From Wolfiporia cocos (lineage: Eukaryota > Basidiomycota > Agaricomycetes > Polyporales > Phaeolaceae): 64,000 nt of DNA. Within the stretch, counting starts at the first letter, position 1. Every line of letters starts with the position of its first letter. A program made the translations under genes and the position numbers. The stretch is taken from positions 186,001-250,000 of the forward strand of contig JACCLO010000022.1 in assembly GCA_029448655.1 (NCBI GenBank), written 5' to 3'. The notes beneath the pieces were generated by a model. The model was not told where the DNA came from. It saw nothing but the letters and a program-made list of their open reading frames with translations, and ran no database searches. Below, piece by piece: positions 16,305 through 51,190 of this stretch.

Positions 16305-16735
16305 ATGTCGACCATCAACGTATCCAACTACCAAGCGGTCCAGGGTCCCCACTTCGTAATTCATAAGGTAGTCACGCCTTACAACCTGGTGATAGGAAGA
16401 TGGCATTGGCCAGGCGCGTACACGTGCCTTATGCACTTCCTCAAAATAAAGTTCAACATCACCGTCACGGGCCCGGGAATCACCACTTTCAACTCCATCC
16501 CTCCGCACGTTCGTCCCCATTTAGCACTAAACACCACAGCTTGGGTCCGCTACTGTGGCCCAGATTCCACGCGGAATCACATTTGCTGGTTTAGATGGAC
16601 GGACGACGCATATGAGATGCGCATGGTGGAGCTTCTGCTCTGCTACGGGGACGTTCACTGGTACTCCCCTTTTGAAAATACCTCTACAGACAATGCGAGT
16701 AGGCCCCTTACGGCGCCCATAAGGCGCCTTAGGCC

Positions 16736-24057: not shown

Positions 24058-25683
24058 CTATACAATCGCGAGTATTTCCTCTTCTACCGAAGTAGTTGAG
24101 GGCCCTGCCACCTTGTCAGGTGGTGTTACACCGAAGGCAAAAGTAATTTGTAGCGCTACGCATTCTGCTATGATACGAGCCAAGTCCGTACGCCAATCCA
24201 AAAAGGAAATATTGCCGAGCTGTTTGCAGTACTTTTTCATAATTCTCCAGTCTCTATTGGTGATCCTTCCCCGTCTCGCTCTATCCTTTACGTTATCCAC
24301 CAAGTCCTCCAATTCTACTACCATAGTGTGGAAACGCATGTCGTTTTCCATATGGAAGCCTGGGTAATTAGGGGGGTGGTTGGCGAGAGGAGTGAGGCGA
24401 GTGAGAGTGCCTTCTAGCATGGGAATAACTTGATCGCATGCTTGGAGGGGCTTCTTCTTCCCGAAGACGAGGGAAGGGTCGAGAATCTTGTGGTTGGCCG
24501 GAACGGGAGGTCCGGCCGCCGGGCTGGAGAGACGGAGGGCCAGTGAAGAAGCTGCTTGCTTGGCTTCCTTGGCGGCTTGTTTGGCGGCGATTCGCTTATT
24601 CAGCTTATCGCGGGCGAGCTTGAGCTTGTTGAGTTCGCGGAGTTCGATAAGGTTCTCCATGGCGGTAATGGATTGTGACACAAACAAGGTTGTGGGACTC
24701 ACACTATAGCTTGATAACGACTTGAAGAGAGTTGTTGAAGCTGGTGAGGGAACGCTTGTAGGCGCAGTAGAGATGTTATGTGACTATGCGATAGCAGAGA
24801 ACAAATCTAAGGCTTATCGTAGCGATAGCCCTACTTATATACATGCATTGTTTGGTTACCAGTAAGGGAGCCAAACATGAAGACGGTCTGTGCGCAGACA
24901 TAACTAATACAGCTAAGTCGTAAACTACAGTAGACCATGTGCGCCGGTAATGGCCGCACCAGTAAGAAACGTTGTTAGGACCGTAGGTCCATGTTGTGGA
25001 AGTGGCGTTGCTACGTTAGTAAGCCATGCACGTGATAACTATATGCCGGTATCGGGATATGAGTAATCGTAAGTGCATTGGCATGTGATAACGAGCGGGC
25101 CGCTTATCCAATTGTACTGACATAGCCCGGTATCGGGATATGAGTAAGACGCGTGACACCGGAGGTTAGTCCGCTGAGTCATTGACGCGTACAAACGTGT
25201 TATGTACGTGTTGTTATGACGAGTGGACGTATACCGCGTTGTGTACGTGTTGTTTGGTTGCGTGTACGTGTAGACGGGCGCTTAGCAGCGTAAATGTCTA
25301 CAAGGTCGTAGAAATACCAGATAAATAGGTAAAAATACGGGAAAAATAATGGCATGTCCCAAATCTGTGACAGATTGCGCTAGCTTCTCTTCCTCTGTCC
25401 AGATACGCTTAGCGAGCGGAACTGGTTTGGGAGGTCGAGGGGCGGGTTTCCCAGCCTCAGCAATGTGCTTTGGCATGTGGACGGGAATCTCCCAAAGATG
25501 GAGTTTCCCAGTGTAATCTTCCTTTACAGGAAGCGTGTAGGTGACGTCCTCTGCCCGAGGAATGTCGGCGGTGTCGATGCGGCTGAGAAGGGACCGCTTC
25601 GCCGGTTTGACGTAAGGGGCAGTGGAGGAGCCACGGGTGCGACGGGTAACGCGGGGCATGATTCTAGAAAGTGCAGCCTTCAT
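24058..25683 (-). pseudogene. R1-d ORF0, interrupted by a solo R1 LTR
   Basis: Codons 25683-25378 and 24675-24058 are continuous with one copy of GATTG. Apart from the LTR the protein is the same as R1-e ORF0 (307 aa, start MKAALSRIMPR). gag and pol of this copy remain open, so this is the main defect of an otherwise intact element. Confidence 0.92.
24676..25372 (-). repeat. Solo R1 LTR inside R1-d ORF0
   Basis: 697 bp, TSD GATTG (24671-24675 and 25373-25377). It belongs to the R1-e LTR subfamily: it shares that copy's TATGCCGGTATCGGG-type variant and differs from its host element's LTRs. Confidence 0.95.
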
Positions 25684-27364: not shown

Positions 27365-28060
27365 AGGCCCAGACCCCTTAGGGTCATGATGACCGCTCGC
27401 CAACAAGCGTCGCGTAGAAAACACGTGCCCACCAACAGGGCAACAACCGAGGAAGCAGAAGATGCGCTGAACGCCAAATACGCCGAGGGCCTATACCGAG
27501 GTAGAGCCGAAGCGGAGCAGAACCAAACCGAGTGCGTCCTCGTACGACGCTTGGAAGGAACTGCCGAGCCTAGACTCCGCGACCTCCCCGCCCCCGGCAA
27601 CGATCAGCCCGTCGCCTCATCCTCCAACATCGCTGCCGCCCACCAAGAGCCAGCACGGTTTGCCGACTACATCGACCAACTCCCCGTAGGAATCATACGT
27701 GAAAACGTATGCGTTTCCTACCAACAATACGAATGGGGCTTACGCCTCATTCCCCTCCTTGACCAAGTAGATAGGATCCTCATCGAAATCCACAGGGTCA
27801 TATTCGATAACGACACCAACTACTACCAGGAGAAGGAATGCCAGGAGGTACACCAACAAATTCGCGCGTACCGCCACTTCGTAGACTCCTTTTTCCTGTC
27901 GCTTCTCTACGGACGACTCTCCAATAAAGAATTAGAGGAGATCGAGAGAAACGCCAACGCAATCCGTCGTTATTTAAGGAATGGGAAGGTTTTACGTGGA
28001 AGGGTCTTTTCGGCTATTAAAGGACTTGCGGCCTTAAAATATACATTTCCCCTGTTGTAA

Positions 28061-28967: not shown

Positions 28968-29662
28968 TGTCACAGATTTGGGACATGCCACTATTTTTCC
29001 CGTATTTTTACCTATTTATCTGGTATTTCTACGACCTTGTAGACATTTACGCTGCTAAGCGCCCGTCTACACGTACACGCAACCAAACAACACGTACACA
29101 ACGCGGTATACGTCCACCTGTCATAACAACACGTACATAACACGTTTGTACGCGTCAATGACTCAGCGGACTAACCTCCGGTGTCACGCGCCTTACTCAT
29201 ATCCCGCTATCGGGCTATGTCAGTACATTTGGATAAGCGGCCCGCTCGTTATCACATGCCAATGCCCTTACGATTACTCATATCCCGATACCGGTATATA
29301 GTTATCACGTGCATGGCTTACTAACGTAGCAACGCCACTTCCACAACATGGACCTACGGTCCTAACAACGTTTCTTACTGGTGCGGCCATTACCGGCGCA
29401 CATGGTCTACTGTAGTTTACGACTTAGCTGTATTAGTTATGTCTGCGCACAGACCGTCTTCATGTTTGGCTCCCTTACTGGTAACCAAACAATGCATGTA
29501 TATAAGTAGGGCTATCGCTACGATAAGCCTTAGATTTGTTCTCTGCTATCGCATAGTCACATAACATCTCTACTGCGCCTACAAGCGTTCCTCACCAGCT
29601 TCAACAACTCCTTCAAGTCGTTATCAAGCTAAAGCGTGAGTCCCACAACCTTGTTTGTGTCA
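28968..29662 (+). repeat. R1-e 5' LTR
   Basis: 695 bp, TGTCACAG...TGTGTCA. Upstream GCGCACAGACC module near 29444, CACATG-type boxes, TATATAA at 29499-29505. Confidence 0.96.
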
Positions 29663-29675
29663 TAAGAACAAATCT
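29532..29675 (+). promoter_or_regulatory. R1 transcript start, self-primer and primer-binding site
   Basis: AGATTTGTTCT (29532-29542) starts 33 nt after TATA. Its exact 11-nt complement AGAACAAATCT lies at 29665-29675, 2 nt after the LTR. This is the geometry of Tf1/sushi-type self-priming, where the RNA 5' end folds back, is cut and primes minus-strand DNA. Confidence 0.82.
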
Positions 29676-30681
29676 GCCCCCTACCCCCGCCCTTGCGCTT
29701 GCGCTTGGGCCTGGGTTTCTATCCTACAGGGGCTATTACTCGTTGCTGCGCACATCTCTACTCTTGACAAAGAGTTAGGGGTGATAGTTGAGATCTGGGG
29801 GATACATCGTCATCCTCGGCAGAGGATTGACAACCAGGGAAGCCACACCGCCTTTTTAGGCAGGAGGCCTACCTAACCCGGACTCCAGGGTTAAGGAGAC
29901 ATGGTCCTCGCTGACAAGCTTGGACTATGCGCGGTTAAGACCCGCCTGTGGAGAAAAGGGGACGGTCTGCCTGTGTGCGCCCAACCCCCTGTCATGGCAA
30001 GCGTTGTTCAGCGCCCCATCACTATCCACAGGGTCATCAGTATGATGGCATGGGAATTTTCCAAAGCCGCCTCCCAGGCGTAAGGGACCTGCTTTGAACC
30101 CGTTATGGGAAAAGCAGTGAGGGGGGTGACGTAAAAAATCACCCTGCCATAGGTCACTCGCGGTAGCCAATAGCATAAGTCCTACGGGCAGCTCGGCGTG
30201 CGAGCATGGGTCAAACGGATTTGGGGCCCCATTGGAAGAGAAGCGCGTGGCCCACTCCTTCGGGACGTGGAGCGCTGCTGTCTCGCGATCTTAGATCGAC
30301 AATGGTTTTTTAGCCCTGATGTGACACCCATGTGGCTACAGACGGCAACCTCATTGTTGAAGCATGGACAGGCTAAGGGATGTAAAATCCCAGCCACTTT
30401 CCGGCATCGTCCCTCCGGGGCGGTGTCGTGTATCCGATTCCCAATCATCTGACCCAGGAACCGGCCTGGCAGTCAGCAACTCTACCCCTGGAGTCGGCGC
30501 CTCTGACCGTTAGGGTCATGCGAATATCCGCGCCGTCTCGGCACAGGGTTTGCGCGCAACATAAGAGTAATTATGCCCCGTAGTACACCTTCTTTGCTCC
30601 TGAAAAGGAGTCCACTACCCTACCTTACATAATCCCTTTTATTCCTGTTCTTGGACGTATCACTGGGAAACTTTGTTTCTC
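29663..30681 (+). other. R1-e leader, structured non-coding RNA
   Basis: About 1 kb between LTR and ORF0, with many hairpins. ACUCUU-GACA-AAGAGU is at 29760-29775; the same place in R1-c has ACUCCU-GACA-AGGAGU, a compensatory pair. CUCCU-GAAA-AGGAG is at 30597-30610, 72 nt before the ORF0 ATG. Parts (30370-30560) align with the R4 leader. Confidence 0.82.
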
Positions 30682-31605
30682 ATGAAGGCTGCACTTTCTA
30701 GAATCATGCCCCGCGTTACCCGTCGCACCCGTGGCTCCTCCACTGCCCCCTACGTCAAACCGGCGAAGCGGTCCCTTCTCAGCCGCATCGACACCGCCGA
30801 CATTCCTCGGGCAGAGGACGTTACGTACACTCTTCCTGTAAAGGAAGACTACACCGGGAAGCTCCATCTTTGGGAGATTCCCGTCCACATGCCAAAGCAC
30901 ATCGCTGAGGCTGGGAAACCCGCTCCTCGACCTCCCAAGCCAGTTCCGCTCGCTAAGCGTATCTGGACAGAGGAAGAGAAGCTAGCGCAATCCATTACCG
31001 CCATGGAGAACCTTATCGAACTCCGCGAAATCAACAAGCTCAAGCTCGCTCGCGATAAGCTGAATAAGCGAATCGCCGCCAAACAAGCCGCTAAGGAAGC
31101 CAAGCAAGCAGCTTCTTCACTGGCCCTCCGTCTCTCCAGCCCGGCGGCCGGACCCTCCGTTCCGGCCAACCACAAGATTCTCGACCCTTCCCTCGTCTTC
31201 GGGAAGAAGAAGCCTCTCCAAGCATGCGACCAAGTTATTCCCATGCTAGAAGGCACTCTCACTCGTCTCACTCCTCTCGCCAACCACCCCCCTAATTACC
31301 CAGGCTTCCATATGGAAAACGACATGCGTTTCCACACTATGGTGGTAGAATTAGAAGACTTGGTGGATAACGTAAAGGATAGAGCGAGACGGGGGAGGAT
31401 CACCAATAGAGACTGGAGAATTATGAAAAAGTACTGTAAACAGCTCGGCAGTATTTCCTTTTTGGATTGGCGTACGGACTTAGCTCGTATCATAGCAGAA
31501 TGCGTAGCGCTACATATTACTTTTGCCTTCGGTGTAACACCACCTGACAAGGTGGCAGGGCCCTCAACTACTTCGGTAGAAGAGGATATACTCGCGATTG
31601 TGTAG
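30682..31605 (+). CDS. R1-e ORF0 protein, 307 aa, unknown function
   Basis: First ORF of the intact element. I chose the ATG at 30682 (MKAALSRIMPR); a second Met (MPRVTRR) at 30709 is also possible. Basic N terminus (about residues 1-30), a Pro-rich stretch with WEIPVHMPKHIAEAGKP, a Lys/Arg coiled-coil-like helix (about 110-145), a hydrophobic core and a C-terminal helical part (DLVDNVKDRARRGR, then WRIMKKYCKQL). No known motif, signal peptide or membrane segment is visible. R4 has a clear homologue and R2 a more distant one. It lies 101 nt before gag in another frame, so its translation on the same RNA requires an uncommon mechanism or a spliced RNA. Confidence 0.9.
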   Translation: MKAALSRIMPRVTRRTRGSSTAPYVKPAKRSLLSRIDTADIPRAEDVTYTLPVKEDYTGKLHLWEIPVHMPKHIAEAGKPAPRPPKPVPLAKRIWTEEEKLAQSITAMENLIELREINKLKLARDKLNKRIAAKQAAKEAKQAASSLALRLSSPAAGPSVPANHKILDPSLVFGKKKPLQACDQVIPMLEGTLTRLTPLANHPPNYPGFHMENDMRFHTMVVELEDLVDNVKDRARRGRITNRDWRIMKKYCKQLGSISFLDWRTDLARIIAECVALHITFAFGVTPPDKVAGPSTTSVEEDILAIV

Positions 31606-31706
31606 TAGCAATACTATCATCTTTTAACTCTGAAATAGAGTGCGAGTGTGATCTATAACGAAAGTTGCAGCTTCCAAAACCAGTCCCTTCTTAAGAATCT
31701 AAGACA

Positions 31707-33740
31707 ATGAGTAACCGGAAACTAACATTCGTCACAAACAGATTCACAATGTCCTCCACCTCCTCCGTCAGCACTCCCCTCGCTCCCCGCAAGATGCGCC
31801 TCCGCTCAGAAGGCCCGGTGACGCCAGTAGCTGGTCCCTCGGGAACCCAGCAATTGGTAACGCTGGAGCACCTAAGCGAGGGAGAGGAAGAAGAAGAGGA
31901 AGAGGAAGTGCCGGAGTTCGCTCCCCCACAAAGGGAATCTCCGACAAACCCCATGGGTACGCGCCCAGGCTCGCCCATTGCCGGATACCCTCCGGCTCGT
32001 CGAACTCGCCCTATCGGGCCCGCCACCACCCTCGAAATGGAATTTACGGGGCCGACACGACAGACCAATGTCGCTGTCGAGAACAATCTCAAAGCATACC
32101 TCCCTGAGGAGGAACATCACAAGGTAGACGGGTCCCTACATGGGCCAATAATCGACGCCGCCGTACAACGCAGTGCGGCAATCTCTCATGACACCACCGA
32201 CACCCTCGGTCGAATGGTGCACGCTCGCCTGGAGCGAATCCACGGCAGAATCGATTCCCTGGTTGGGCAATCCAGGGCCATCGAACAAAAAGCCCAAGAC
32301 GAGCTACACGAGGCGGTCAATTCAGTCCGCAACGAGGTTTTGTCCACGCTGGTGGACCTCGGCAAGGAACTCCGACAGGAGTACACCGCCAAGTTCACCA
32401 CGTTGGAAAAGGAGCTCCGAAAGGACTACCGGTCCCGGCTGGACGACCTCGAGGATGCGTTCGCCGAAAGAATGGAGAAGGTTGACGAGGAACTCCGGAG
32501 GATTCGCAAGAATCCCTCCGTTCCCAACCCTCCCGGCGTCCGCACGCCCCCGGAAGAACCCGCACCGGCCCCCGGTAATGCTCAAGCTCGTGCAGCCGAG
32601 GCCGCTGCCGCCGCACAAGCTGCAGCCGCTGCTGCAGCAGCCGTCGCCCCGCAGATTCCAGGTCTGCCCCAAAACCTGAAGATCCCCCCTCCCCCCGAAT
32701 TCTCTGGGTCATCTGGAAAGGTGACTGCACAAGAATGGGTGGAGAAGATGGGCCTGTACTTCGGTACGCTCAGGGTCTATGATGACCATGACCGTATCAC
32801 CACGGCCCTCTTCCGCGTCACAGGGGACGCATACAAATTCTTCTCGCCTCTCATCAAGAAGGCAGGAAACGGTGAACCTCTCGGCACCTGGGAGGACTTC
32901 ACCAAATCCGTAATGGTGCAATATGGGAAAATGACGGACAAGGAGATAGCCAAGAAGGAAATTCGCGGCTATTACGGTACCAAGGGTAAGGAACTCGCCG
33001 AATCGAACTACTTCAATTACTGTGAACGATTCCGCACCCTCGGCCGCCTCTCCGAAACCGCCAATGAGACTCTGGTATGGGAATTCACCGAGACTCTCCC
33101 CGAAAAGGTTAAGGACACCTTGAACGTCCTCGGCAAGACCCCGTTCTTCAAGGCACCCACCGACATCGAACCTCTGATCGACTTCGCCCTAGAAATGTAT
33201 CAGACATCTTACCCTGACAAGATTAAGGGTTCGATCTTCGAGAAGGCCGGCAAGAAGGACTCGGCACCTGCCGAAAAGAAGGAGACGTCCTCCGCTTCTG
33301 CAAAGAAGTCGGAGAAAAAGAAGGACAAGGGAAAGGCGCCCGCCAAAGCCCCCGCCGACACCGCCAACGCCGTCTGCACCTACTGCAAGCAGACGGGACA
33401 CTATTTCAACAAGTGTCCTAAGCTTGCCGCGGACAAGGCTGCGGGAACGTTCGTGCCTGCCGCTCAGCGGGCCGAACAACAAAGGGCGAAGGATGCAGCT
33501 GCCGCGTCTGGAAAGACCGCGGCTGCTCCTTCGGGTAGTGGAAAGGGACAGGCTTCTGGCAAGAAGCCGTACTCGGCGCCCCCCGCGGATGGCAAGACGT
33601 ATCGTGCCCGAACGATCTGGGAAGAAGTGACGGCTGACTCAAACTCAGCAGGACCCTCGGCCCCCGCCACCACTGTCGCCAATGTCGGGACCATCTCGGT
33701 TCCCCTCGCCCCAACCACACGTCTCGAAGACGTTCTGTGA
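31707..33740 (+). CDS. gag: R1-e Gag, 677 aa
   Basis: Starts MSNRKLTF; a second Met follows 14 codons later. Glu-rich stretch at about residues 60-70, Pro-rich region, helical segment with GKELRQEYTAKF, Ala-rich linker (about 290-320), capsid-like domain (PPEFSGSSGKVTAQEWVEKM to LPEKVKDTL), Lys-rich tail and CCHC zinc knuckle near residue 558. The overlap with pol is 33682-33740. Confidence 0.96.
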   Translation: MSNRKLTFVTNRFTMSSTSSVSTPLAPRKMRLRSEGPVTPVAGPSGTQQLVTLEHLSEGEEEEEEEEVPEFAPPQRESPTNPMGTRPGSPIAGYPPARRTRPIGPATTLEMEFTGPTRQTNVAVENNLKAYLPEEEHHKVDGSLHGPIIDAAVQRSAAISHDTTDTLGRMVHARLERIHGRIDSLVGQSRAIEQKAQDELHEAVNSVRNEVLSTLVDLGKELRQEYTAKFTTLEKELRKDYRSRLDDLEDAFAERMEKVDEELRRIRKNPSVPNPPGVRTPPEEPAPAPGNAQARAAEAAAAAQAAAAAAAAVAPQIPGLPQNLKIPPPPEFSGSSGKVTAQEWVEKMGLYFGTLRVYDDHDRITTALFRVTGDAYKFFSPLIKKAGNGEPLGTWEDFTKSVMVQYGKMTDKEIAKKEIRGYYGTKGKELAESNYFNYCERFRTLGRLSETANETLVWEFTETLPEKVKDTLNVLGKTPFFKAPTDIEPLIDFALEMYQTSYPDKIKGSIFEKAGKKDSAPAEKKETSSASAKKSEKKKDKGKAPAKAPADTANAVCTYCKQTGHYFNKCPKLAADKAAGTFVPAAQRAEQQRAKDAAAASGKTAAAPSGSGKGQASGKKPYSAPPADGKTYRARTIWEEVTADSNSAGPSAPATTVANVGTISVPLAPTTRLEDVL

Positions 33741-36700
33741 AGAACACACCAGCCCCGCAGCGGCTGGGAGTGTACAGCGCCCCGAAGAAGCGCACCTCTA
33801 CGAAGAGGCTTCACAGAGACCCCTTATCTGGTGGGAAGATAAGGCGGTCGTACGTCACCCGGTATCCCATCTCGGTATATTCGGCAGCTCGGCAATGGAC
33901 TTTGCCCGGAGGACTCGGACACTAGCTACACGTGCCCCTCCTGTACAATACTTCTATCCTGACCCGCTCGCGCTAAAGTTTTTCACTTTGTATAATGTAC
34001 ACGGAAACGATTCTCGAGACGACAATAAATCGTTCTCTATCGAAGTGGAACTGTGGGTATATGGAAAGAAAGTTAACGCCATGGCATTAATCGACACCGG
34101 TGCATCAATAAGCGTCATTGATAAGAAACTCGTCCACGAGGAAAAGTTAGTTACTCAGAAACTACCTTCGCCTCTCGAGATTCGTAACGCCGACGGTACC
34201 TCTAATACCGCCGGTAATATCAATATGGCAGTAAAAGCTTATATGGTGCACGAGGAACACAAGTCCACCGAATTCTTGTACGTAATGGACGTACAGAATG
34301 CGGATGTGATCCTCGGATATGATTGGTTCCTGAAACACAACCCGGACTTCAACTGGCCGGAAGGAACCTTCACATATCGGTGCACGGAAAAATGCAAACA
34401 TGGCAAACGGGTTTCGATTTCTGAGGAAGAAGATGAAATCGAACCCCGCAATATCTATCAGATCATCAATGACTTTCCAATAGATTTTCTCGGCTTAGAG
34501 GAGCCGGAGAATCCCTTTGTCGCTTGGGTGAACACCCTTGACGAAGGAACGGAACTCCTTATCGATGCCATTCAGTCGATAACGGAGAAGTCGGACGATG
34601 AATTCCTGACAGATGCGGATCTCCAGAAATGGAAATCCTTGGTTCCGGAGGAATACCAGGAGTTTGGTCCCACGGTATTTTCTCAACGCGCATCCGAAAG
34701 GATGCCCGAACGGAAACCATATGACCACGCCATCGACTTCCCCGATGACGCGGTACTACCGCCCCCGAGTAAGGCATACAAGATGTCTCCTCAGGAAGCG
34801 AACTCGCTAGATCAGTGGATTCAGGAAGAGTTACGGAAGGGCTACATCCGGCACTCAAAATCTCCGATCGCGAGCCCGGTCTTCTTCGTCCCTAAAAAAG
34901 ACGGCGGAGCCCGAATGGTAGTCGATTACCGAAAGGTGAACGACTTGACCATTAAAAACAGGTACCCTCTCCCACGCATAGACGAGCTTATCGATAAGCT
35001 TAGCCAGGCTTCGATATTTACGAAGCTCGACTTGCGTTGGGGTTACAACAACGTAAGAATCAAGGAGGGAGATGAATGGAAGACCGCATTCATTACACCT
35101 AACGGCCTTTACGAAGCCGTAGTCATGTACTTCGGTTTTTGTAATGCACCCAGCACGTTCCAACATATGATGAACGATATTCTAGGTGACCTTATCAGAG
35201 AAGGAAAGGTCATTGTCTACCTAGACGACATCCTTGTGTTCGGAAACGACCTGCTGGAACACCGTCGTATCGTCAAGCAAGTATTACAAATCTTGCAAGA
35301 CAACGACTTGTTCGCGAAGCCTGAAAAGTGCTTCTTCGAACAAAGCAGTATTGAATACCTGGGAATGGTCATTTCCAAAGGAAAAGTCGAAATGGACCCT
35401 AAGAAGGTAGCCGGCGTCATGGACTGGCCTACACCTGCCAAGGTGAAGGACGTCCAGGCCTTTGTTGGCTTCGCCAACTACTACCGGCGGTTCATTAAAG
35501 ACTTCTCCAAAGTGGTTAAGCCGTTAACCGATCTGTCCAAGAAAAACACGCAATGGAACTGGGGACCCGAACAAGCGGAAGCCTTCCAAACTCTTAAGGA
35601 AGCTTTCACATCGGCTCCAATACTCCGGATCCCAGATCAGGAGTCCCCGTTCCGCGTGGAAGCGGATTCTTCCGATTACGCAACTGGTGCAGTGCTATCA
35701 CAATACTCTTCGGAGGATAAGCTCTGGCACCCGGTAGCCTTTTACTCGAAATCTCTATCAGCAGCCGAAAGGAACTATGAGATTTACGACAAGGAGTTGC
35801 TCGCAATCATCCGCGCTCTAGAGGAATGGAGACATTACCTCGAAGGACACCCACACAAATTTGAAGTATGGTCGGATCATCTCAATCTGACATATTTCAA
35901 ATCGGCACAACGGCTAACCCGGAGACAGGCACGTTGGAGTCTTTACCTGACAAGGTTCAACTTCACCATGTGCCACAAACCCGGTAAAACAATGCTCACG
36001 GCTGACCCTCTGTCACGGAGGCCAGACCATGAAGAGGGGGTGGAACTCGATAATCGCGATCAAATTTTGCTGAAACCGGAATACTTCACGGTTAGGGCGC
36101 TAGAAGCGTCACAGCAGGAGATACAATCAGGCGACGAGGACCTCCTCCGGCAAATCCGACAAGCCCTCATGAACGATCAAATTACCAAGGATTACCAGGA
36201 ACTACTAAAAAGTGGTCCCAAGGAATTCGGTAAAGATCTCCAGGAATGGAACATGGAGGCCGGATTACTCCTCAGACGAGGAAAAGTGTACGTTCCAAAA
36301 GAGCCTAAGGAATTGCGCACGAAGATTCTGGAGTTACATCATGACCATGTGACTGCCGGACACTTCGGACGATGGAAGACCTATGAACTTCTATCACGTA
36401 ATTACTGGTGGCCTGGAATGACCACAATGGTGAAGCAATACGTGGAAGGTTGTGATACATGTCAGCGCATGAAGAACCGCAACCAGACCCCGTATGGACC
36501 CCTGCAACCGCTCCCAGTACCGGAAGCACCCTGGGACACAATCACAATCGACTTCATCGTTCACTTACCGCCCAGCGGTGAACGCAAACAATTCACTGCC
36601 ATTATGGTAGTAGTGGACCGATTGACCAAGCGCGCGCACTTCATTCCCACGTCAGACAATATCTCGGCAAAGGAATTAGCGAACCTCCTGTACCTTCGGA

Positions 36701-38217
36701 TTTATCCGAACCACGGGCTTCCGAAACAAATCATTTCGGACAGAGGACCGCAATTCTCTTCTGAGCTATTCAAGGGATGGTGCGAGCAATTGGGAATTCA
36801 GAGGTCGATGACAACAGCCTACCACCCGCAAGCGGACGGCCAAACGGAGAGAATTAACCAAATTCTAGAACAATACCTACGATGCTACATCGACGTTATC
36901 CAAAAAGATAACTGGGTGTTCTATCTCCCCACGGCAGAGTTTGCGTACAATAACGCGGCTAGCGAGACGACCAAGAATAGTCCATTCTTCGTCGAACTAG
37001 GAAGGCATCCCAATGCAGGACCTACGGATTTGAAACCGACGCAATATTCGGATTTAAATCAATTTGCTTACGCCAGATGGTCAGCACAAGAACAAGCTAA
37101 GGCAGCTATGAAATTGGCTGCCGAACGCTGGTCTTGGTACTATGATCAACACAAGCGCTCGGTACCGTTTAAAGTTGGCGACAAAGTTCTCGTTGACGCC
37201 CGTAGCTGGCAAGACTCCGAAAGAAGTCTTAGTCCACGCTATTTGGGACCATTTAAGATAATTGAACAATTATCTCCGGTCACCTTTAGGGTACATATGG
37301 ACGAGCAATACAGGGCTTACCACCCAGTATTCCACGCTTCCAAGTTGGTCATGTACAAGGACCCTGTGCATCAGAAAAAACCAGAGCCTCAACCAGAAAT
37401 GGTCGACGGCGAGGAAGTATGGGAAGTCGAGAAGATCTTAGATCATCGCCTCCGCGCAGGAAGAGTTGAATACAGAATCCGATGGAAAGGGTTCGGTATC
37501 AATGACGACTCCTGGGTACGCGAAGCCGATCTCGACTCGGCATATGACATTCTACAGGAATACAAGGCTTCACACCCTATTCCAATGCAGGATGTCCCCC
37601 TCAGGCGATCAGCTAGAAGGAAAGAAGCAGTTCACGTCTTCGACCCTGATAGCGACGACTGGGAAGCCGACGAATGCACGTGGCCAGACGACTGGCCGCA
37701 GTATCGCGAAGTATTTGCGAAAGATCCTAAGCAGCGCATGGTTAGACACCCCGACGGGGGATGGATGTCAGCTGACATTAACCAAAACGCGGACTTGAAA
37801 ATCGTAGTCGGCGAAGGCGGCCGAATGCCGGAAAAAGGAACCAAGGACTCGGTTGGGTTTGACCTGTACACCGCAACAGGCGACGTTCTGCCAGCTCACG
37901 GGCAGGCAGAATACAACACCAAACTGAAGATCCAGGTACCTTTCGGCACTTACGGACGTATCGCCCCCCGCTCTAGTCTCGCCCGCAAAGGCATAGACGT
38001 AATGGGTGGCGTCATCGACCACGATTATCAAGGCGAAGTAATCATCATTCTTCGGAACCACTCGGACGTATCTATCGATATCCGAGCCGGGGATAAGATT
38101 GCCCAGCTAATCTGCGAAGTTGCAAAGGACCCGCATATTACGCTACACGGAAAATCTTACTTTGAAAAGATTAAATCCGAGCGCGGTGCTGGTGGATTCG
38201 GCTCCACAGGAAAGTAA
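33682..38217 (+). CDS. pol: R1-e Pol polyprotein with chromodomain and dUTPase, 1511 aa
   Basis: Same domain order as R1-d: protease (DTG about 138), reverse transcriptase (YLDD about 512), RNase H, integrase (HHCC and D,D-35-E), chromodomain (about 1246-1295) and five-motif dUTPase (about 1380-1511, ending GGFGSTGK). No stops. The first in-frame Met is at 33682 inside gag, in the +1 frame relative to gag (equivalent to -2). A 39-nt gap separates the stop from the 3' LTR. The region 36540-37080 differs from R1-d at more codons than flanking parts, suggesting recombination with a diverged copy. Confidence 0.97.
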   Translation: MSGPSRFPSPQPHVSKTFCEEHTSPAAAGSVQRPEEAHLYEEASQRPLIWWEDKAVVRHPVSHLGIFGSSAMDFARRTRTLATRAPPVQYFYPDPLALKFFTLYNVHGNDSRDDNKSFSIEVELWVYGKKVNAMALIDTGASISVIDKKLVHEEKLVTQKLPSPLEIRNADGTSNTAGNINMAVKAYMVHEEHKSTEFLYVMDVQNADVILGYDWFLKHNPDFNWPEGTFTYRCTEKCKHGKRVSISEEEDEIEPRNIYQIINDFPIDFLGLEEPENPFVAWVNTLDEGTELLIDAIQSITEKSDDEFLTDADLQKWKSLVPEEYQEFGPTVFSQRASERMPERKPYDHAIDFPDDAVLPPPSKAYKMSPQEANSLDQWIQEELRKGYIRHSKSPIASPVFFVPKKDGGARMVVDYRKVNDLTIKNRYPLPRIDELIDKLSQASIFTKLDLRWGYNNVRIKEGDEWKTAFITPNGLYEAVVMYFGFCNAPSTFQHMMNDILGDLIREGKVIVYLDDILVFGNDLLEHRRIVKQVLQILQDNDLFAKPEKCFFEQSSIEYLGMVISKGKVEMDPKKVAGVMDWPTPAKVKDVQAFVGFANYYRRFIKDFSKVVKPLTDLSKKNTQWNWGPEQAEAFQTLKEAFTSAPILRIPDQESPFRVEADSSDYATGAVLSQYSSEDKLWHPVAFYSKSLSAAERNYEIYDKELLAIIRALEEWRHYLEGHPHKFEVWSDHLNLTYFKSAQRLTRRQARWSLYLTRFNFTMCHKPGKTMLTADPLSRRPDHEEGVELDNRDQILLKPEYFTVRALEASQQEIQSGDEDLLRQIRQALMNDQITKDYQELLKSGPKEFGKDLQEWNMEAGLLLRRGKVYVPKEPKELRTKILELHHDHVTAGHFGRWKTYELLSRNYWWPGMTTMVKQYVEGCDTCQRMKNRNQTPYGPLQPLPVPEAPWDTITIDFIVHLPPSGERKQFTAIMVVVDRLTKRAHFIPTSDNISAKELANLLYLRIYPNHGLPKQIISDRGPQFSSELFKGWCEQLGIQRSMTTAYHPQADGQTERINQILEQYLRCYIDVIQKDNWVFYLPTAEFAYNNAASETTKNSPFFVELGRHPNAGPTDLKPTQYSDLNQFAYARWSAQEQAKAAMKLAAERWSWYYDQHKRSVPFKVGDKVLVDARSWQDSERSLSPRYLGPFKIIEQLSPVTFRVHMDEQYRAYHPVFHASKLVMYKDPVHQKKPEPQPEMVDGEEVWEVEKILDHRLRAGRVEYRIRWKGFGINDDSWVREADLDSAYDILQEYKASHPIPMQDVPLRRSARRKEAVHVFDPDSDDWEADECTWPDDWPQYREVFAKDPKQRMVRHPDGGWMSADINQNADLKIVVGEGGRMPEKGTKDSVGFDLYTATGDVLPAHGQAEYNTKLKIQVPFGTYGRIAPRSSLARKGIDVMGGVIDHDYQGEVIIILRNHSDVSIDIRAGDKIAQLICEVAKDPHITLHGKSYFEKIKSERGAGGFGSTGK

Positions 38218-42577: not shown

Positions 42578-43387
42578 ATGCCGAAAGCACCACGTTTCAC
42601 GGTTACCCCGAGAAACGCCGCTACGGGGGAGCGCGAGGAATGGCATATTGCCGCCTCTAAATCGCTCGAAGACCGCATCTCCGCGGTCACAGCCCCAAAG
42701 CGAGGAAAGTCCCGAAAGGGCAAAGACGTCTTCTACAGGAAGCCGAACCCCGACCCAGAGGAGATCCGAAGGGTCAACCACGAGGCAGCCCTCGACGACA
42801 TCAGGCGGAAGAAGCTCAACAAGCTTCTTCGACAGAAGGAGAAGCTCGAGGCTCGGATCCAGAAACAAAGCCTGGATCAGCTAATCGCCGAGGCAGCCAG
42901 GAAGAGGGTTGAGGAAGAGAGGATGGTGAGGAGTCTTCGGGAGCGAATCAAGCCCCCAAAGAAGTCACTGTTGGAAAGGGTGGAGGAGCTTAGGATGCCG
43001 GCCGAGTGGGTCGAGAAACGGGGTCTTGCGAACCCCAGGGACGTCCATTGCACGGAGAAAAAGTGGGACTGGTTTTTGGACGTCGACAAACAGATGAACG
43101 CCGCCCACAAGAATCTTTTCCGCCTATGGAAAGTCCCCGACGCAACCACCACGGCCCCCATCATAGCGAAATTCACCACCCTCATCACCGACTTCGACGA
43201 TCTCTCCACACACCTGGAGCAAAGGGTCCGTCAGGACTCCATGAAGAACGAAGATCTCCGCCGTCTCGAAAAATATCTCAGGAGGGTGGAGCACGTTTTT
43301 GGGGACCTAGACGTGAAACAGCACGTTACGTACTTAAAGACACATTTAGTACATAGCGGTCTCAACTTCGAACAAAGGGGGTTATAG
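42578..43387 (+). CDS. R2-b ORF0 protein (C-terminal few residues from junction)
   Basis: 269 codons, nearly identical to R2-c ORF0 until LNF, after which the last codons (EQRGL) come from the sequence beyond the breakpoint. Basic start MPKAPRFTVTPRNAA, a Lys/Arg-rich helix (KKLNKLLRQKEKLEARIQKQ) and a C-terminal helical part (MKNEDLRRLEKYLRRVEHVF). Layout and the LNKL...KL...I motif match R1/R4 ORF0; overall identity is low, so the homology is inferred. Confidence 0.82.
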   Translation: MPKAPRFTVTPRNAATGEREEWHIAASKSLEDRISAVTAPKRGKSRKGKDVFYRKPNPDPEEIRRVNHEAALDDIRRKKLNKLLRQKEKLEARIQKQSLDQLIAEAARKRVEEERMVRSLRERIKPPKKSLLERVEELRMPAEWVEKRGLANPRDVHCTEKKWDWFLDVDKQMNAAHKNLFRLWKVPDATTTAPIIAKFTTLITDFDDLSTHLEQRVRQDSMKNEDLRRLEKYLRRVEHVFGDLDVKQHVTYLKTHLVHSGLNFEQRGL

Positions 43388-47500: not shown

Positions 47501-48953
47501 AAAAGCACTTTTCGGGCTTCGCATACAAGTCCGAGTCCTTCAGGGTTTGTAGAACCCCTTTGGTAAGTCGCCGATGTTCCTCCATATCATTCCCGAAAAT
47601 CAAGATGTCATCTAGGTAGACAACCACCTTGCCGGTTCGAATGAACGGTGCGAGGATAGAATTCATCATCGCTTGGAACGTTGCGGGGGCATTGCAGAAA
47701 CCGAAATACATTACCGTTGCCTCGTATAGTCCACGGTGTGTAATAAACGCCGTCTTCCATTCATCACCTTCCTTGATGCGGACATTGTTGTATCCCCATC
47801 TAAGGTCGATTTTGGTGAAGATGGTCGCATGGGACAGTTGATCGATGAGATCATCGATCCGAGGTATCGGATAACGATTTTTTACGGTTATTTCGTTTAG
47901 CCTCCTGTAATCGACAACCATCCGCAGTCCCCCGTCCTTTTTGTGGACGAAGAAAACCGGGGATGCCATCGGACTTTCGGATGGTCGAATGTAACCCTTC
48001 CGTAGTTCGGTGTCTATCCACTCATCCAAGCTATTACGCTCTTGGGGAGACATTTTGTATGGTTTTACCGGGGGAGGAAGTTGCGCATCTGGTTCAAGCA
48101 CTATGGCGTGATCCCAGGGCTTCCGTTCCGGCATCCTCTCTGACGCTTTTTGTGAGAACACCGTTGGCCCATACTCTTGGTATTGTTCGGGCACTAACGA
48201 TCGCCACTTTTCAATGTCAATCGGTGGTGTGTTTTCCTCACGGTCGTCTGCTTCATCGAGGTCTTTGTCAAGTACCTCGGCTACCAACTGTGTCAGCAGG
48301 TTCATTTCCTCGTCGTCAAGGGTTGCCACCCAAGCGATCAAAGGATTTTCGGGGTCCTCCTCTCCTAATATGTCCACGGGAGTGTCCCAAATCGAATTTA
48401 CTTCGATGATTTCCTTTTCTGGGAGTTCAACTGCTTCCTCTTCAGAAGGGCGGTTACCCTTTTTTCTGGCGTAGGGTCGGTCGTGTGTACAGCGTGCATA
48501 TTCCATTTCTCCTTTCCTCCAATCAAAGGTAGGATTGTGGAGACGCAACCAGTCATAGCCAAGGATTAGGTCTGGTTCTAGGTGCATGACCGTCAGACCT
48601 ATTTTTTCCTTGTGTGTGCCATGTTGCATGAATGCTTTTACTGATTGCGTTAAGCGGCCGGCGACGTTTTCTGTTCCGTCTGCGTTTGTAACCGTAATGG
48701 GAAACGCTAGTTTGTCGGTGACCAGCTTATGTTTATCGACCAATCGTTGTGATATGACCGATATGGTTGCACCGCTGTCGATTAAAGCCAGAGCCTGCAC
48801 TTTTTGCCCATATACCCAGAGTGTTACTTCGACACGGAATGATCGAGCGAAGTCGCGCGCATCGTTGCCAAAAATATGATACATTGACTCGAATACACTC
48901 TTTACAGCGGGTACGGGACTAAAATTACACGGGAGCACAAGTGGGCAGGTCAT
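44526..48953 (-). CDS. pol: R2-c Pol polyprotein with chromodomain and dUTPase, 1475 aa
   Basis: The ATG at 48953 overlaps the gag stop as TGATG, so termination-reinitiation is a likely mode of expression. Domains: protease with DSG (about residue 60) in place of DTG, reverse transcriptase with YLDD (about 475), RNase H, integrase with HHCC and D,D-35-E, chromodomain, and dUTPase in the last about 135 residues with all five motifs ending GFGSTGR. It is full length with no stop. It lacks the 100-residue N-terminal extension of R1 Pol, because gag and pol hardly overlap here. Confidence 0.97.
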   Translation of the reverse strand: MTCPLVLPCNFSPVPAVKSVFESMYHIFGNDARDFARSFRVEVTLWVYGQKVQALALIDSGATISVISQRLVDKHKLVTDKLAFPITVTNADGTENVAGRLTQSVKAFMQHGTHKEKIGLTVMHLEPDLILGYDWLRLHNPTFDWRKGEMEYARCTHDRPYARKKGNRPSEEEAVELPEKEIIEVNSIWDTPVDILGEEDPENPLIAWVATLDDEEMNLLTQLVAEVLDKDLDEADDREENTPPIDIEKWRSLVPEQYQEYGPTVFSQKASERMPERKPWDHAIVLEPDAQLPPPVKPYKMSPQERNSLDEWIDTELRKGYIRPSESPMASPVFFVHKKDGGLRMVVDYRRLNEITVKNRYPIPRIDDLIDQLSHATIFTKIDLRWGYNNVRIKEGDEWKTAFITHRGLYEATVMYFGFCNAPATFQAMMNSILAPFIRTGKVVVYLDDILIFGNDMEEHRRLTKGVLQTLKDSDLYAKPEKCFFEQSSIEYLGMIISDGNIMMDPKKYAGVQDWPRPNKVKEVQAFLGFANFYRRFIEGFSKIAKPLTMLTKKSEAWHWDAEQENAFQTLKEAFTKAPVLRIPSHDQPFRVETDASDFATGAVLSQLDPTDKKFHPVAYYSKSLSAPERNYEIYDKEMLAVIRALEEWRHYLEGHPEKFEIWSDHLNLTYFKTAQKLTRRQARWALYLSRFNFQMKHKPGKTMLTADPLFRRPDHEEGVDLDNRDQVLLKPEWFEQEYMAMALDTSHAAPQSEDESILREIRKALLDDKVTKDYKELLSSGPREFKKDLSEWNYEGGLLLRRGKVYVPATPADIRRQVVEYHHDHKSAGHFGRYKTYELLSRNYWWPGMFVYVKKYVDGCDTCQRMKNHPQKPYGPLQPLPVPSGPWEVVTIDLITQLPPSGMHDAIMVVVDRLTKRARFFPIENTFSTKDLATILYQKVYPLHGLPKQIVSDRGTQFASKLFGEWCTLLGIQRSMTTAYHPQADGQTERVNQILEQYLRCYINTYQKDNWSEFLPTAEFAYNNAASETTKESPFLVELGRHPIAGPSSFEPSRNKDLVEIANTRFSAQEKAKAAMKIAAERWSWYYDQKKQVVPFKVGDKVLVDVRSWQDTERSLAPRYTGPFRITEKLGPVTFKVYMDAQYRAYHPVFHASKLVMYKESTIEGQKSHPPAADKPMEIEDPEEWEVEAILDHRNRRGRWEYLIHWKGTGPAEDTWEIEEHLANAKEILDEYKAKYSALSTDPNQPLRRSTRLGGTRQTIAVFDPDSPDWDSDTCVWPDDWPQYRDDVDPTQPKVYYKRDPFTGQWVHSDVEFNEDLEIEVGVNGKLPTRGTTDAIGYDLYAAQDILINSWKSASVPTDIRIKVPYGTYGRIAPRSGLAKKGIDVLAGVIDHDYRGEVFVMLMNLTGDPYQVKKGDRIAQLICEVAITPEIQESMTKEKFEKDIRPHLHGSGPYNEQFNKPTKRGTQGFGSTGR

Positions 48954-51190
48954 CACATGTGCTCGGTGGGAAAACCCGAGGCAGAGCTTCCGTAGATGCC
49001 CAAGGTGTTGGCGGAGTCGGCTATCCGCTTGCGAAGCCAGGGCAGATGTGTCCTGATGGAGTCGCCCGACGGTGTAGGCGCAGTCGAAGTCGAACCAGTC
49101 GACTGGGTCTGGACGGGGCTGGTGCTTTCTGCCGATCGCACCGAACTCCCGCTTTGCTCCTCATCGCTGATGCGCGTAGTGGGGGCCAGAGGAACCACCT
49201 CTGGTTGCTTCGGAACGTTGGTCCGGATGGTCCCTACGGTGGCTTGGGGGGACTCATCTTCGTCGTCAGTCACTAGTTCCTGGGTGCTGACGATTCGGAC
49301 CTTGTATTTCTTTTTCGGGTCCAATTTCTTCTGGCCCGACTGTTGCGTTCCGCTCGACGAGCCTGTCGGCTTCGTCGTTCCGCTTCCACTACTGGCCGGC
49401 TTGGCTTCCTTTGGCTTGTTCTTAGGGTTCTCAGGACAGTCGCCCCATTTGTGTTGTCCAGGGTGCTTGCGACAGTCCTTTCCGTAAGAGCCGGTTTCCT
49501 TTGCCTTGCCTTTGCCTTTGTCATCAGCCTTGGCAGGCTTCGACGTAGCCTTGTCGGTGGTCTTGCCAGACCCCGACGACTCCTTCCTTTTTTCTTCCTC
49601 AAAGATCTTGCCTTTGAGCTTGTCCGGGTATTGCCTCTTGTAGAGGTCAATGGCCATATCGAGGTAAACCTCCCAGTCGGTCGGCATTGTAAAGCCGGGC
49701 ACCGATTCCAAAGTGGCGAGGGTTTCTCGCACTTTTTCCGGGAGGATCCGTTTGATGTGACTGAACAACGTTTTGTTGTCAGTCTCGGCCAGGCGAGCCA
49801 GGGTCCTGAGCTTCTGTGCCCAAGAGAAGAAGTCTGATTGGAGCTTCTTTTTCCCTTCGTCTCCGAAGTACCCTTCAATCTCTTTTTCGGCAATCTCCTT
49901 GTCTGTCTTTTTGCCGTACACCTTCTCGATCGTTTCCGCAAACGTTTTCCAGGTGTGCCCCGAGGTTTGTCCGGCGGCGATTTTATCAACTACCGGTGAC
50001 ATGTACTGGTAGGCCTCGCCCGTAAGCCGTAGCAGGGCTTGGCGAACCTTGTCTTCCTCGAGGGTCACCTTGGCATCTGCGAAATACATGCCCATTTTTT
50101 GGATCCACTCTTTCGACGAGATGGAGTCCTTAGGGCCCGAGAATTTGGGCGGCTGAGTCGGTTTGGTCTGTTGGAAGTTGACCGTTGTGGCTGCTGCTGG
50201 CGCAGCTGCCGGTGCGTTTTTTAGAGCGGTTAACTCCGCTTCGAGTTGGTCGATTCTATTAATTAGTGCCGTGACCTGGGCACCGCTGGGTCCCGCGGTT
50301 GGGACTGCCGGACGCTTTTGCAGTACTGCGATATCTTTTTCTATGCGGACGAATCGATTTTCGGAAAGGGTATCCAATTGTTGCCGCAAACTCTCTGCTT
50401 CCTCTAGTGCTTCGATTCTGTTTTGAAGCACCTGATTGTGGCTCCAAATCTGGTTGGTCTTGTTCCAGACCATTTCCAAATCCGTGTCCACCCGGCCTTT
50501 GTAGGCCGCGAGGTTGCTGTAGAGATGGTTCTTGGCTTGGTACAGCGCCTCTCTGTAAGCTTCTTTTCCCACCTGCAGAACTTCGTCTGAGGCGGCCACT
50601 TCCAGAGTTCGCTGCAACCTTCCCGTCAATTCGTTCTCGCTCCTTTCCGGCTGCGCGACTATTTCCAGAGTCCTCCTTTCATAGGAAGGGAGGAGATCGG
50701 GGAGCGTCCCAAATAGGGGCTCCGTGTTGACCGGTTCTTCCGGTCGTGGAGTCTCGCTGCCTTCGGGGGTGATAACTGCGCGGCGAACGGGTGTTTCCGT
50801 GCTGAAGAGCCTTGCGGCTCTCGTGCGTGGTGACGCTTCTTCCTCCGAGTACCAGTGGACGTCACCGTAGTAGACTATGAGGTCCGCTAGGGAGATGGCG
50901 GTACAGTAGTTGTCCCATCTCCACCACGAAATGTGGTTCCTAGTCGAATCTTCCCCGTAGTACTTGATGTACGCCGTATGATTTACATTCAGGAATGGGC
51001 GCACATGCGCCGGAATTGAGTTGAAGGAGGTGACACTCCCCCTAACTCTGATGCCGAATACGACTCGCAGGTAGTCCATCAAGCAGGTTTGCTCTCCGGG
51101 CCACGCGTGCTTGCCGACGGCGGGGCGGTAGGCCGTAGCCACCTTGTGGGTGTTGTACAAAGCGCCTTGGACGATTGTGTAAGACACCAT
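48953..51190 (-). CDS. gag: R2-c Gag with novel N-terminal domain, 745 aa
   Basis: The ATG at 51190 (MVSYTIVQG) is chosen over an upstream TTG because R3 ORF0 begins in the same way. Residues 1-150 form a domain shared with R3 ORF0 (SFNSIPAHVRP, DSTRNHISWWRW, YGDVHWYS). Then helical regions, a capsid-like domain (PPKFSGPKDSISSKEWIQKM to LPEKVRETL), a Lys-rich tail and an atypical zinc knuckle in which Cys-x2-His-x3-His-x4-Cys (CRKHPGQHKWGDC) replaces CCHC. Ser/Thr/Gln-rich C terminus. The stop overlaps the pol start. Confidence 0.94.
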   Translation of the reverse strand: MVSYTIVQGALYNTHKVATAYRPAVGKHAWPGEQTCLMDYLRVVFGIRVRGSVTSFNSIPAHVRPFLNVNHTAYIKYYGEDSTRNHISWWRWDNYCTAISLADLIVYYGDVHWYSEEEASPRTRAARLFSTETPVRRAVITPEGSETPRPEEPVNTEPLFGTLPDLLPSYERRTLEIVAQPERSENELTGRLQRTLEVAASDEVLQVGKEAYREALYQAKNHLYSNLAAYKGRVDTDLEMVWNKTNQIWSHNQVLQNRIEALEEAESLRQQLDTLSENRFVRIEKDIAVLQKRPAVPTAGPSGAQVTALINRIDQLEAELTALKNAPAAAPAAATTVNFQQTKPTQPPKFSGPKDSISSKEWIQKMGMYFADAKVTLEEDKVRQALLRLTGEAYQYMSPVVDKIAAGQTSGHTWKTFAETIEKVYGKKTDKEIAEKEIEGYFGDEGKKKLQSDFFSWAQKLRTLARLAETDNKTLFSHIKRILPEKVRETLATLESVPGFTMPTDWEVYLDMAIDLYKRQYPDKLKGKIFEEEKRKESSGSGKTTDKATSKPAKADDKGKGKAKETGSYGKDCRKHPGQHKWGDCPENPKNKPKEAKPASSGSGTTKPTGSSSGTQQSGQKKLDPKKKYKVRIVSTQELVTDDEDESPQATVGTIRTNVPKQPEVVPLAPTTRISDEEQSGSSVRSAESTSPVQTQSTGSTSTAPTPSGDSIRTHLPWLRKRIADSANTLGIYGSSASGFPTEHM

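What the first reader, a model, noticed from the sequence alone, without database searches (positions are those of the whole stretch)
30682..31605. A conserved accessory ORF (ORF0) upstream of gag in four retrotransposon families
R1 (9902-10825, 24058-25683, 30682-31605) and R4 (62106-62942) share a clear protein: the W-IPV-MP-HIA-AGKP block, the LNKL-AR-KLNK-IA-KQ helix, DLVDN-K-RAR and an acidic end. R2 (42578-43387, 51343-52158) and R3 (16305-28060) have an ORF in the same place with a basic start, the same kind of helix and a helical C terminus. Standard Ty3/gypsy elements have gag first. I do not know this family, and its conservation across diverged elements means it was under selection. 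RNA binding, virion assembly or nuclear transport are guesses.
Basis: partly seen in the sequence, partly recalled or inferred. Interest (0 to 1): 0.87.

Follow-up and report, generated by a model that had tools for sequence, protein, structure and literature searches.

The report
Selected pre-gag gene in mushroom retrotransposons
A fungal genome whose closest named protein matches are from the mushroom Wolfiporia holds well over a hundred retrotransposons with an extra, strongly conserved gene in front of the usual gag gene; the gene likely makes an RNA-binding helper of Gag and is predicted to be read from a spliced message, so one can now test whether such extra genes do anything.

Summary
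dN/dS is 0.05-0.22 within families, against 0.07-0.08 for gag and pol. No Pfam family reaches its cut-off for these proteins. R3 has an ORF in the same place, split by a nested R1 element, but homology is not shown and its N-terminal half is a domain of R2 Gag. Two further features: hairpins with UGNNAA loops (21 sense, 0 antisense in five element sequences), one of them inside the ORF0 coding end with 4 of 5 stem pairs compensated; and a splice-donor consensus in U5, ahead of a self-priming PBS, with TAG just before the ORF0 start. These predict an ORF0 mRNA without leader or PBS; no RNA data exist. The proposed function, an RNA-binding Gag partner, is inference. Pre-gag ORFs as such are known; this family and its RNA signals appear new within my searches.

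The parts
30706..31605 (+).
9902..10801 (-). R1b ORF0 (likely start; first ATG at 10825)
24058..25683 (-). R1c ORF0, split by a solo R1 LTR at 24676-25372
62106..62942 (-). R4 ORF0
42578..43387 (+). R2 ORF0 (copy cut off before gag)
51343..52158 (-). R2 ORF0 of the element with LTRs at 43817-44436 and 52859-53472
16305..16735 (+). R3 pre-gag ORF, 5' part: domain shared with the R2 Gag N-terminus
27365..28060 (+). R3 pre-gag ORF, 3' part, beyond the nested R1c element (16736-27364)
31707..33740 (+). R1a gag
33682..38217 (+). R1a pol: protease, RT, RNase H, integrase, chromodomain, dUTPase
48953..51190 (-). R2 gag from its first ATG, with an N-terminal domain shared with the R3 pre-gag ORF
28968..29662 (+). 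R1a 5' LTR, identical to the 3' LTR at 38257-38951
29532..29542 (+). R1a self-primer (predicted RNA 5' end), 33 nt after the start of a TATATA box
29665..29675 (+). R1a PBS, complementary to the self-primer
29636..30701 (+). R1a predicted leader intron: GTGAGT in U5 to TAG before the ORF0 ATG; holds the PBS
   Evidence: prediction
29760..29775 (+). UGNNAA hairpin in the R1a leader
30597..30610 (+). UGNNAA hairpin upstream of R1a ORF0
30831..30848 (+). UGNNAA hairpin in R1a ORF0 (LPVKED codons)
31540..31555 (+). UGNNAA hairpin in the R1a ORF0 end, with compensatory changes in R4 and R4b
31627..31641 (+). related hairpin (7-nt loop) between R1a ORF0 and gag
33732..33745 (+). UGNNAA hairpin over the R1a gag stop codon
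62991..63004 (-). UGNNAA hairpin upstream of R4 ORF0
62141..62156 (-). UGNNAA hairpin in the R4 ORF0 end
62076..62089 (-). UGNNAA hairpin between R4 ORF0 and gag

Best explanation
ORF0 is one homologous gene family under purifying selection that lies in front of gag in the related Ty3/gypsy families R1, R2 and R4, and it likely encodes an RNA-binding, helical partner of Gag that would help to select or package the element's unspliced genome RNA. Shown: homology, position, selection, basic proteins (pI 9.6-9.9), sense-strand hairpins with a constant loop around and inside ORF0, a PBS complementary to the element's own LTR, and a splice-donor consensus in U5 upstream of it. Predicted: transcription starts at the self-primer, and the U5 donor is joined to the TAG just before the ORF0 ATG (possibly also to an acceptor before gag), which in R1 removes about 1.07 kb of leader with its upstream ATGs and the PBS. 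The spliced RNA would then be message only and the unspliced RNA genome only. Inferred: ORF0 and Gag read the hairpins to tell genome from message. That last step has no direct evidence.
For: Homology. dN/dS 0.08-0.12 in R1, 0.05-0.10 in R2, 0.17-0.22 in R4; direct R1 pairs ORF0 0.11 and 0.14, gag 0.07, pol 0.08. 128 of the 129 R1 matches scored have no stop in ORF0, but only the best 129 of 438 candidates were scored. pI 9.6-9.9 and net positive charge over the first 150 residues in the three proteins measured. Long helix at residues 97-151 (pLDDT 72-88 over 91-140) and a helical C-terminus in the R1 model. Hairpins: UGANAA 12 sense, 0 antisense in five sequences, 300 shuffles mean 0.10, maximum 2; UGNNAA 21 of 168 hexaloop hairpins, next class 6 of 168; ORF0-end hairpin 30 of 30 cells paired, 4 of 5 pairs with a change on both sides. 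Signals: 11-12 nt self-primer/PBS pairs 33-34 nt after TATATA and a 101-106 nt first exon without ATG in four R1 and R2 LTRs; exactly one GTRAGT between primer and PBS in each of the 5 sequences that show the module, out of 9 scanned; TAG 2-4 nt before the ORF0 ATG in 5 of 5 families and in 74 of 76 fetched copies, against 150 of 2027 ATGs in the window in a similar position; TAG is not the stop of an upstream ORF. Link to Gag: the N-terminal domain of R2 Gag sits on the pre-gag ORF in R3 (46%).
Against: No RNA or biochemical data. Structure models are weak (mean pLDDT 50.8 and 52.9) and Foldseek finds nothing at E <= 0.001, so 'RNA-binding' rests on charge and context. R2 has no perfect UGNNAA hairpin in leader, ORF0 or junction; its three junction hairpins carry a bulge. 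The motif was noticed in the sequences then tested, and R1, R4 and R4b hairpins at matching places are not independent. In 20.5 kb of sequence not matching the elements, UGNNAA was also the joint top class, 13 hits; 9 of these lie beside two decayed R3-like copies, 3 of the 9 on the opposite strand, so a clean host control is missing. Two of five covariation measures were ordinary against shuffles (14 and 76 of 500). No CTRAY branch point within 130 nt of the acceptor in four of five families. Three searches for spliced copies found none; [quoted passage not shown] The Gag link rests on R3, whose pre-gag ORF is not shown to be homologous.
Confidence: 0.4

Rival explanations
1. ORF0 is an RNA export or splicing regulator of the Rev/CERV type: made from spliced RNA, it returns to the nucleus, binds hairpins on unspliced RNA and brings the genome out.
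For: Predicted U5 donor and acceptor; basic N-terminus; repeated hairpins in sense RNA; precedent in Cer1, whose CERV comes from a spliced mRNA and is needed for genome RNA export (passages).
Against: No export signal was tested for systematically; a leucine-rich stretch in the R1 helix looks like one by eye but is not kept in R4 or R2 (reading). The hairpins also lie in ORF0, gag and pol, which stay in spliced RNA. The predicted message may carry gag and pol as well.
Confidence: 0.22
2. ORF0 counters host defence (RNA silencing or other fungal genome defence) rather than acting on the element's own RNA or Gag.
For: Badnavirus P2, a pre-gag nucleic-acid-binding protein, is reported as a pathogenic factor in a study framed on RNA-silencing suppression (title and passages); strong selection fits any useful function.
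Against: A defence-facing protein would often show raised dN/dS; ORF0 is about as constrained as gag and pol. No domain match.
Confidence: 0.12
3. ORF0 acts mainly as a long upstream ORF that holds down gag translation; its peptide is secondary.
For: It precedes gag by 101-152 nt and no ATG avoidance is seen in it, so gag needs reinitiation, internal entry or splicing; hairpins sit at the boundaries.
Against: dN/dS 0.05-0.22 and conservation of protein sequence between families show selection on the peptide.
Confidence: 0.06
4. R2 and R1/R4 pre-gag ORFs are unrelated and look alike only through basic, helical composition.
For: Pairwise BLASTP between R1 and R2 is weak (26% over 43 aa, E 5e-4).
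Against: Profile score 80.2 against at most 33.4 in 200 shuffles; N-terminal and C-terminal halves match on their own (E 1.9e-5 and 4.9e-7); a shared start, TG-W-I motif, helix and C-terminal block.
Confidence: 0.04

Closest known systems
Extra ORFs 5' of gag in plant Ty3/gypsy elements (Ogre, Athila, Retrosat2 ORF0)
   Same: An ORF between the 5' LTR and the gag-pol region, function unknown (passages and part of a text; that Ogre and Athila have theirs before gag is partly recalled)
   Different: No Pfam match to the plant-mobile or Athila ORF-1 domains; Retrosat2 ORF0 was not compared by sequence. Plant extra ORFs are described as highly divergent with function in doubt; this family is conserved across element families with dN/dS of about 0.1
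dUTPase-bearing basidiomycete chromoviruses (PosPlaTy3-3, -4 and -5 of Postia placenta)
   Same: Chromodomain and, as in PosPlaTy3-4, a dUTPase at the C-terminus of Pol
   Different: The Figure 3 legend of PMC2864245 names an 'add. ORF' of unknown function, but figure and supplements are not held and I could not see on which element or where it lies; an earlier sighting of this ORF cannot be excluded
Badnavirus P2 (pre-gag ORF of plant pararetroviruses)
   Same: Small nucleic-acid-binding protein with a coiled-coil-like helix, involved in virion assembly (passages); encoded before gag-pol (recalled)
   Different: No sequence similarity shown; host and replication cycle differ
CERV of the C. 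elegans element Cer1
   Same: Element-encoded accessory protein from a spliced mRNA (passages)
   Different: 517 aa; [quoted passage not shown] no homology tested
Tf1/sushi-type self-priming elements (Tf1, Tj1, Tcn1)
   Same: PBS complementary to the element's own RNA start
   Different: A splice donor between self-primer and PBS and a pre-gag gene are not mentioned in the passages I saw
Lambdoid phage boxB hairpins (recalled, no call)
   Same: Short stem closing on a GNRA-like loop read by a basic peptide
   Different: Loop length differs; analogy only, no kinship claimed

Membership tests
Ty3/gypsy chromovirus | RT, RNase H, integrase and a chromodomain after integrase | tested here: met
   R1 and R2 pol, Pfam; R4 and R3 pol were not examined
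Ty3/gypsy chromovirus | 5-bp target duplication | tested here: met
   R1a AACTC, R1c AGGCC, solo LTR GATTG; none seen for the R2 copy
Tf1/sushi self-priming group | PBS complementary to the start of the element's own RNA | tested here: met
   11-12 nt in R1 and R2; at least 10 nt in R3 and two R4 copies; 4 of 9 sequences scanned gave none; the RNA start itself is inferred
Tf1/sushi self-priming group | RT phylogeny | not tested
   no tree was made
dUTPase-bearing fungal chromoviruses | dUTPase domain in Pol | tested here: met
   R1 E 1.7e-32, R2 E 1.3e-33, C-terminal
Plant 5' extra ORFs (Ogre, Athila) | plant mobile domain PF10536 or Athila ORF-1 PF03078 | tested here: not met
   neither is among the matches of R1, R4, R2 or R3b at E <= 1 or among the families listed for 14 R2-type proteins at E <= 0.1
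Badnavirus P2-like virion-associated protein | encoded before gag | tested here: met
Badnavirus P2-like virion-associated protein | coiled-coil-like helix | tested here: inconclusive
   long helix 97-151 in a weak model; no strong heptad repeat there
Badnavirus P2-like virion-associated protein | binds nucleic acid and virions | not testable with these tools
   basic pI only
CERV/Rev-like export regulator | made from a spliced mRNA | tested here: inconclusive
   donor and acceptor consensus; no RNA data; no spliced copies found
Retrosat2 ORF0 | sequence similarity to Retrosat2 ORF0 | not tested
   no Retrosat2 sequence was compared; passages only
ORF0 family of this report, R3 as member | significant similarity to the R1/R4/R2 ORF0 | tested here: not met
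   hhalign E 0.41 and 0.55, with a thin R3 profile

The most novel reading that the evidence does not exclude
A retroelement lineage that splits its RNA into two castes by splicing from a donor placed ahead of its own primer-binding site, so that message cannot be copied back and genome can hardly be translated, and that marks its RNA with a sense-strand hairpin code (UGNNAA) read by a new protein family, ORF0, together with Gag: a fungal counterpart of a Rev/RRE or packaging system.
Probability: 0.2. Interest if true: 0.87.

Novelty: new variant of a known kind. Interest (0 to 1): 0.62.

Why it matters
Extra ORFs in LTR retrotransposons are common, but in plants they are described as so divergent that their having any function is questioned (passages of PMC6317226). 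Here one pre-gag family is conserved between element families at the level of gag and pol, in elements young enough to have identical LTRs, so its role can be tested directly. If the predicted splicing holds, the donor placed ahead of the PBS gives a simple way to keep message and genome apart, and the repeated hairpins give named binding sites to assay.

Tried and rejected
Spliced copies: I predicted the U5-ORF0 junction and searched the genome for it. One R1 hit (C56:772408, 2 mismatches; control 0) looked like proof, but the flanking 456 bases showed an unspliced copy with a 1-nt insertion at the acceptor. The R2 junction and one R1-gag junction pattern gave nothing.

Leaky scanning past ORF0: rejected; ORF0 holds 8-13 internal ATGs and out-of-frame ATGs are as frequent as in synonymous shuffles.

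Structure: AlphaFold2 models of R2 and R1 ORF0 were poor and Foldseek gave no match at E <= 0.001 in PDB or viral models. tRNA and Rfam scans of the window gave nothing.

R3 as ORF0 homologue: not shown. In this genome the R3 C-terminal part has 62 matches among 69 candidates at E <= 0.1, down to 19-25% identity, so R3-type pre-gag ORFs form a family of their own; their sequences could not be fetched.

dN/dS limits: pairs are not independent; the R1 set (29 sequences) holds L013, really an R4 copy, whose pairs fall in the saturated bin, and 22 of 406 R1 pairs had no defined dS. Fetched copies were the best-scoring ones, which favours intact genes. Between families dS is saturated (1.7-2.4), so 0.22-0.30 is only a rough ratio.

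Covariation limits: six rows from three families; dropped were L013 (no tail found) and L012 (frame broken; its tail hairpin was listed under the junction).

Full report
What the window is. The window is C15:186001-250000 of a 64.4-Mb genome in 76 contigs. Named protein relatives are from Wolfiporia cocos MD-104 and from one Fusarium falciforme contig at 99% identity; I take the host to be a Wolfiporia-like polypore, and the Fusarium contig to be probable contamination, which is inference. The window is a nest of LTR retrotransposons. The complete element R1a (28968-38951) has identical 695-bp LTRs and a 5-bp target duplication AACTC, and reads ORF0, gag, pol. Its pol holds protease, RT, RNase H, integrase, chromodomain and a C-terminal dUTPase, as does that of R2.

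The observation. R1 and R4 ORF0 are 42% identical over their length (E 1e-71). R2 looks unrelated by BLASTP except for 43 residues (E 5e-4), but profiles of 8 R1/R4-type and 14 R2-type sequences align over 204 colinear columns at probability 97% and E 2e-11. A local rerun scored 80.2; 100 column shuffles reached 22.2, 100 seven-column block shuffles 33.4, the reversed profile 18.0; N-terminal and C-terminal halves match on their own (E 1.9e-5 and 4.9e-7). Shared features are an M-P start, a TG-x-W-I block, the helix around LNKL-x-KL and the C-terminal F-x-LEDL-x-RxR block. R3 is different: its ORF is split by a complete R1 element, an unsplit copy exists in L070, its first ~135 aa are the N-terminal domain of R2 Gag (46%), and no significant profile match to ORF0 was found.

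Selection and copies. Pairwise Nei-Gojobori dN/dS is 0.08-0.12 among R1 copies (29 distinct sequences, unsaturated bins), 0.05-0.10 among R2 (35), 0.17-0.22 among R4 (4) and 0.22-0.30 between R1, R4 and R4b with saturated dS. Direct R1 pairs give ORF0 0.11 and 0.14, gag 0.07, pol 0.08. So ORF0 is kept nearly as strictly as the replication genes. In the genome, 129 R1 matches were scored out of 438 candidates, 128 without a stop. For R2 143 were scored, 136 at 81% or more and 7 of a subfamily at 56-59%. For R4 five copies and one further lineage, R4b, at 48%.

What the protein looks like. No Pfam family reaches its cut-off for R1, R4 or R2 ORF0. A scan of 14 R2-type members gave scattered matches, best E 0.0026, no family in more than 3 of 14. 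PHROGs gave nothing for R1 and E 0.082 for R2; the PDB best was E 0.036 and 0.2 with the combined alignment. The proteins are basic (pI 9.6-9.9) and acidic or near neutral at the end. The R1 model (mean pLDDT 52.9) shows a disordered start, a beta hairpin at 46-69, a long helix at 97-151 and a helical C-terminus; it is too weak for fold assignment, and Foldseek found nothing at E <= 0.001.

RNA hairpins. Reading the ORF0-gag junctions I saw the same small hairpin again and again. In five non-redundant element sequences, hairpins with loop UGANAA and at least 4 Watson-Crick pairs occur 12 times in the sense strand and 0 times in the antisense strand; 300 dinucleotide shuffles gave a mean of 0.10 and a maximum of 2. 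Opening the loop to UGNNAA gives 21 sense and 0 antisense, 21 of all 168 hexaloop hairpins, next class 6. In R1, R4 and R4b they lie before ORF0, in the ORF0 end and between ORF0 and gag (the R1 junction one has a 7-nt loop); R3 has them after its pre-gag ORF; R2 has three bulged ones in the junction. The ORF0-end hairpin is aligned by codons (R1, R4, R4b): 30 of 30 cells pair, 4 of 5 pairs change on both sides, covariation score 0.747 with 0 of 500 shuffles as high; the number of pairs with such a change was reached by 14 of 500 shuffles and the number of further pair types by 76 of 500. Against: the motif was found and tested on the same data, the families are related, and 20.5 kb of unmasked sequence also gave 13 such hairpins, 9 of them beside two decayed R3-like copies and 3 of these 9 on the opposite strand. 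A clean host control is missing.

Expression. In R1 and R2 the bases right after the LTR are complementary, over 11-12 nt, to a stretch inside the LTR that begins 33-34 nt after the start of a TATATA box: the arrangement of self-priming elements, where the PBS pairs with the RNA's own start (PMC4600332 passages). From that point to a GTGAGT or GTAAGT 20-27 nt before the LTR end there are 101-106 nt without any ATG. A blind scan of nine upstream regions found the primer/PBS module in five (R1, R2, R3, two R4 copies), each with exactly one GTRAGT inside it; the other four (R4 window copy, whose upstream part is cut off by the window end, R4b, L011, L012) gave none. GTRAGT occurs 0.33 times per kb and strand in the window. 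At the other end, TAG stands 2-4 nt before the ORF0 ATG in all five families and is not the stop of an upstream ORF; it is there in 74 of 76 fetched copies, against 150 of 2027 window ATGs in a similar place. The leader between holds 7-23 ATGs. A splice from U5 to this TAG would make ORF0 the first ORF and would remove the PBS. Acceptor-like YAG (AAG in R1) also precedes gag within 3-10 nt in five families (sequences, read by eye). No branch-point consensus was seen in four of five families, and there is no RNA evidence.

Mechanism. I commit to ORF0 as an RNA-binding partner of Gag for genome RNA (0.4). Reasons: the position before gag, basic charge, helix, strong constraint, hairpins in the RNA around it, and the sharing of a domain between R2 Gag and the R3 pre-gag ORF. 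Pre-gag badnavirus P2 proteins bind nucleic acid through a coiled-coil-like helix and take part in virion assembly (passages). A Rev/CERV-like exporter (0.22) and a defence suppressor (0.12) are the main rivals.

Known or new. Pre-gag ORFs are known in plant Ty3/gypsy elements. dUTPase-bearing chromoviruses are known in Postia and Phanerochaete, and one paper's figure legend names an 'add. ORF' of unknown function whose place I could not see. My ten paper searches listed no paper on this protein family, on these hairpins or on a donor ahead of a self-priming PBS; of the listed papers I opened nine, by passages or, for PMC7264820, the first third of the text. I file it as a new variant of a known kind.

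Noticed in passing
window 28375-28841 and 39390-39856: A 467-bp direct-repeat pair (99%) starting TGTCA and ending GCGTCA, with GTCCA on both outer sides, and only about 566 bp of interior once R1a (28968-38951) is set aside: looks like a small TRIM-like LTR element inserted at the R3 gag start, with R1a nested in it.
   Followed up: partly
L011:1501-3216 (-): An open frame of 572 codons runs from R1-type gag straight into R4-type ORF0: a natural in-frame gag-ORF0 fusion, perhaps by template switching.
   Followed up: no
P0001 and P0003 (Fusarium falciforme NW754): One 23.9-kb Fusarium contig size is given for both R1- and R2-type ORF0 proteins at 99% identity to this genome: probable contamination of that assembly, or very recent transfer.
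   Followed up: no
window 50780-51184 (-) and 16305-16735 (+): A ~135-aa domain sits at the N-terminus of Gag in R2 but of the pre-gag ORF in R3 (46% identity); 150 of 166 candidates for it were scored as matches in the genome.
   Followed up: partly
window 48945-48960 (-): R2 gag stop and pol start overlap as UGAUG, a form fit for stop-restart translation; R1 gag and pol overlap by 59 nt.
   Followed up: no
window 31603-31608 (+) and 51340-51345 (-): ORF0 ends in two adjacent stop codons TAGTAG in R1a and R2.
   Followed up: no
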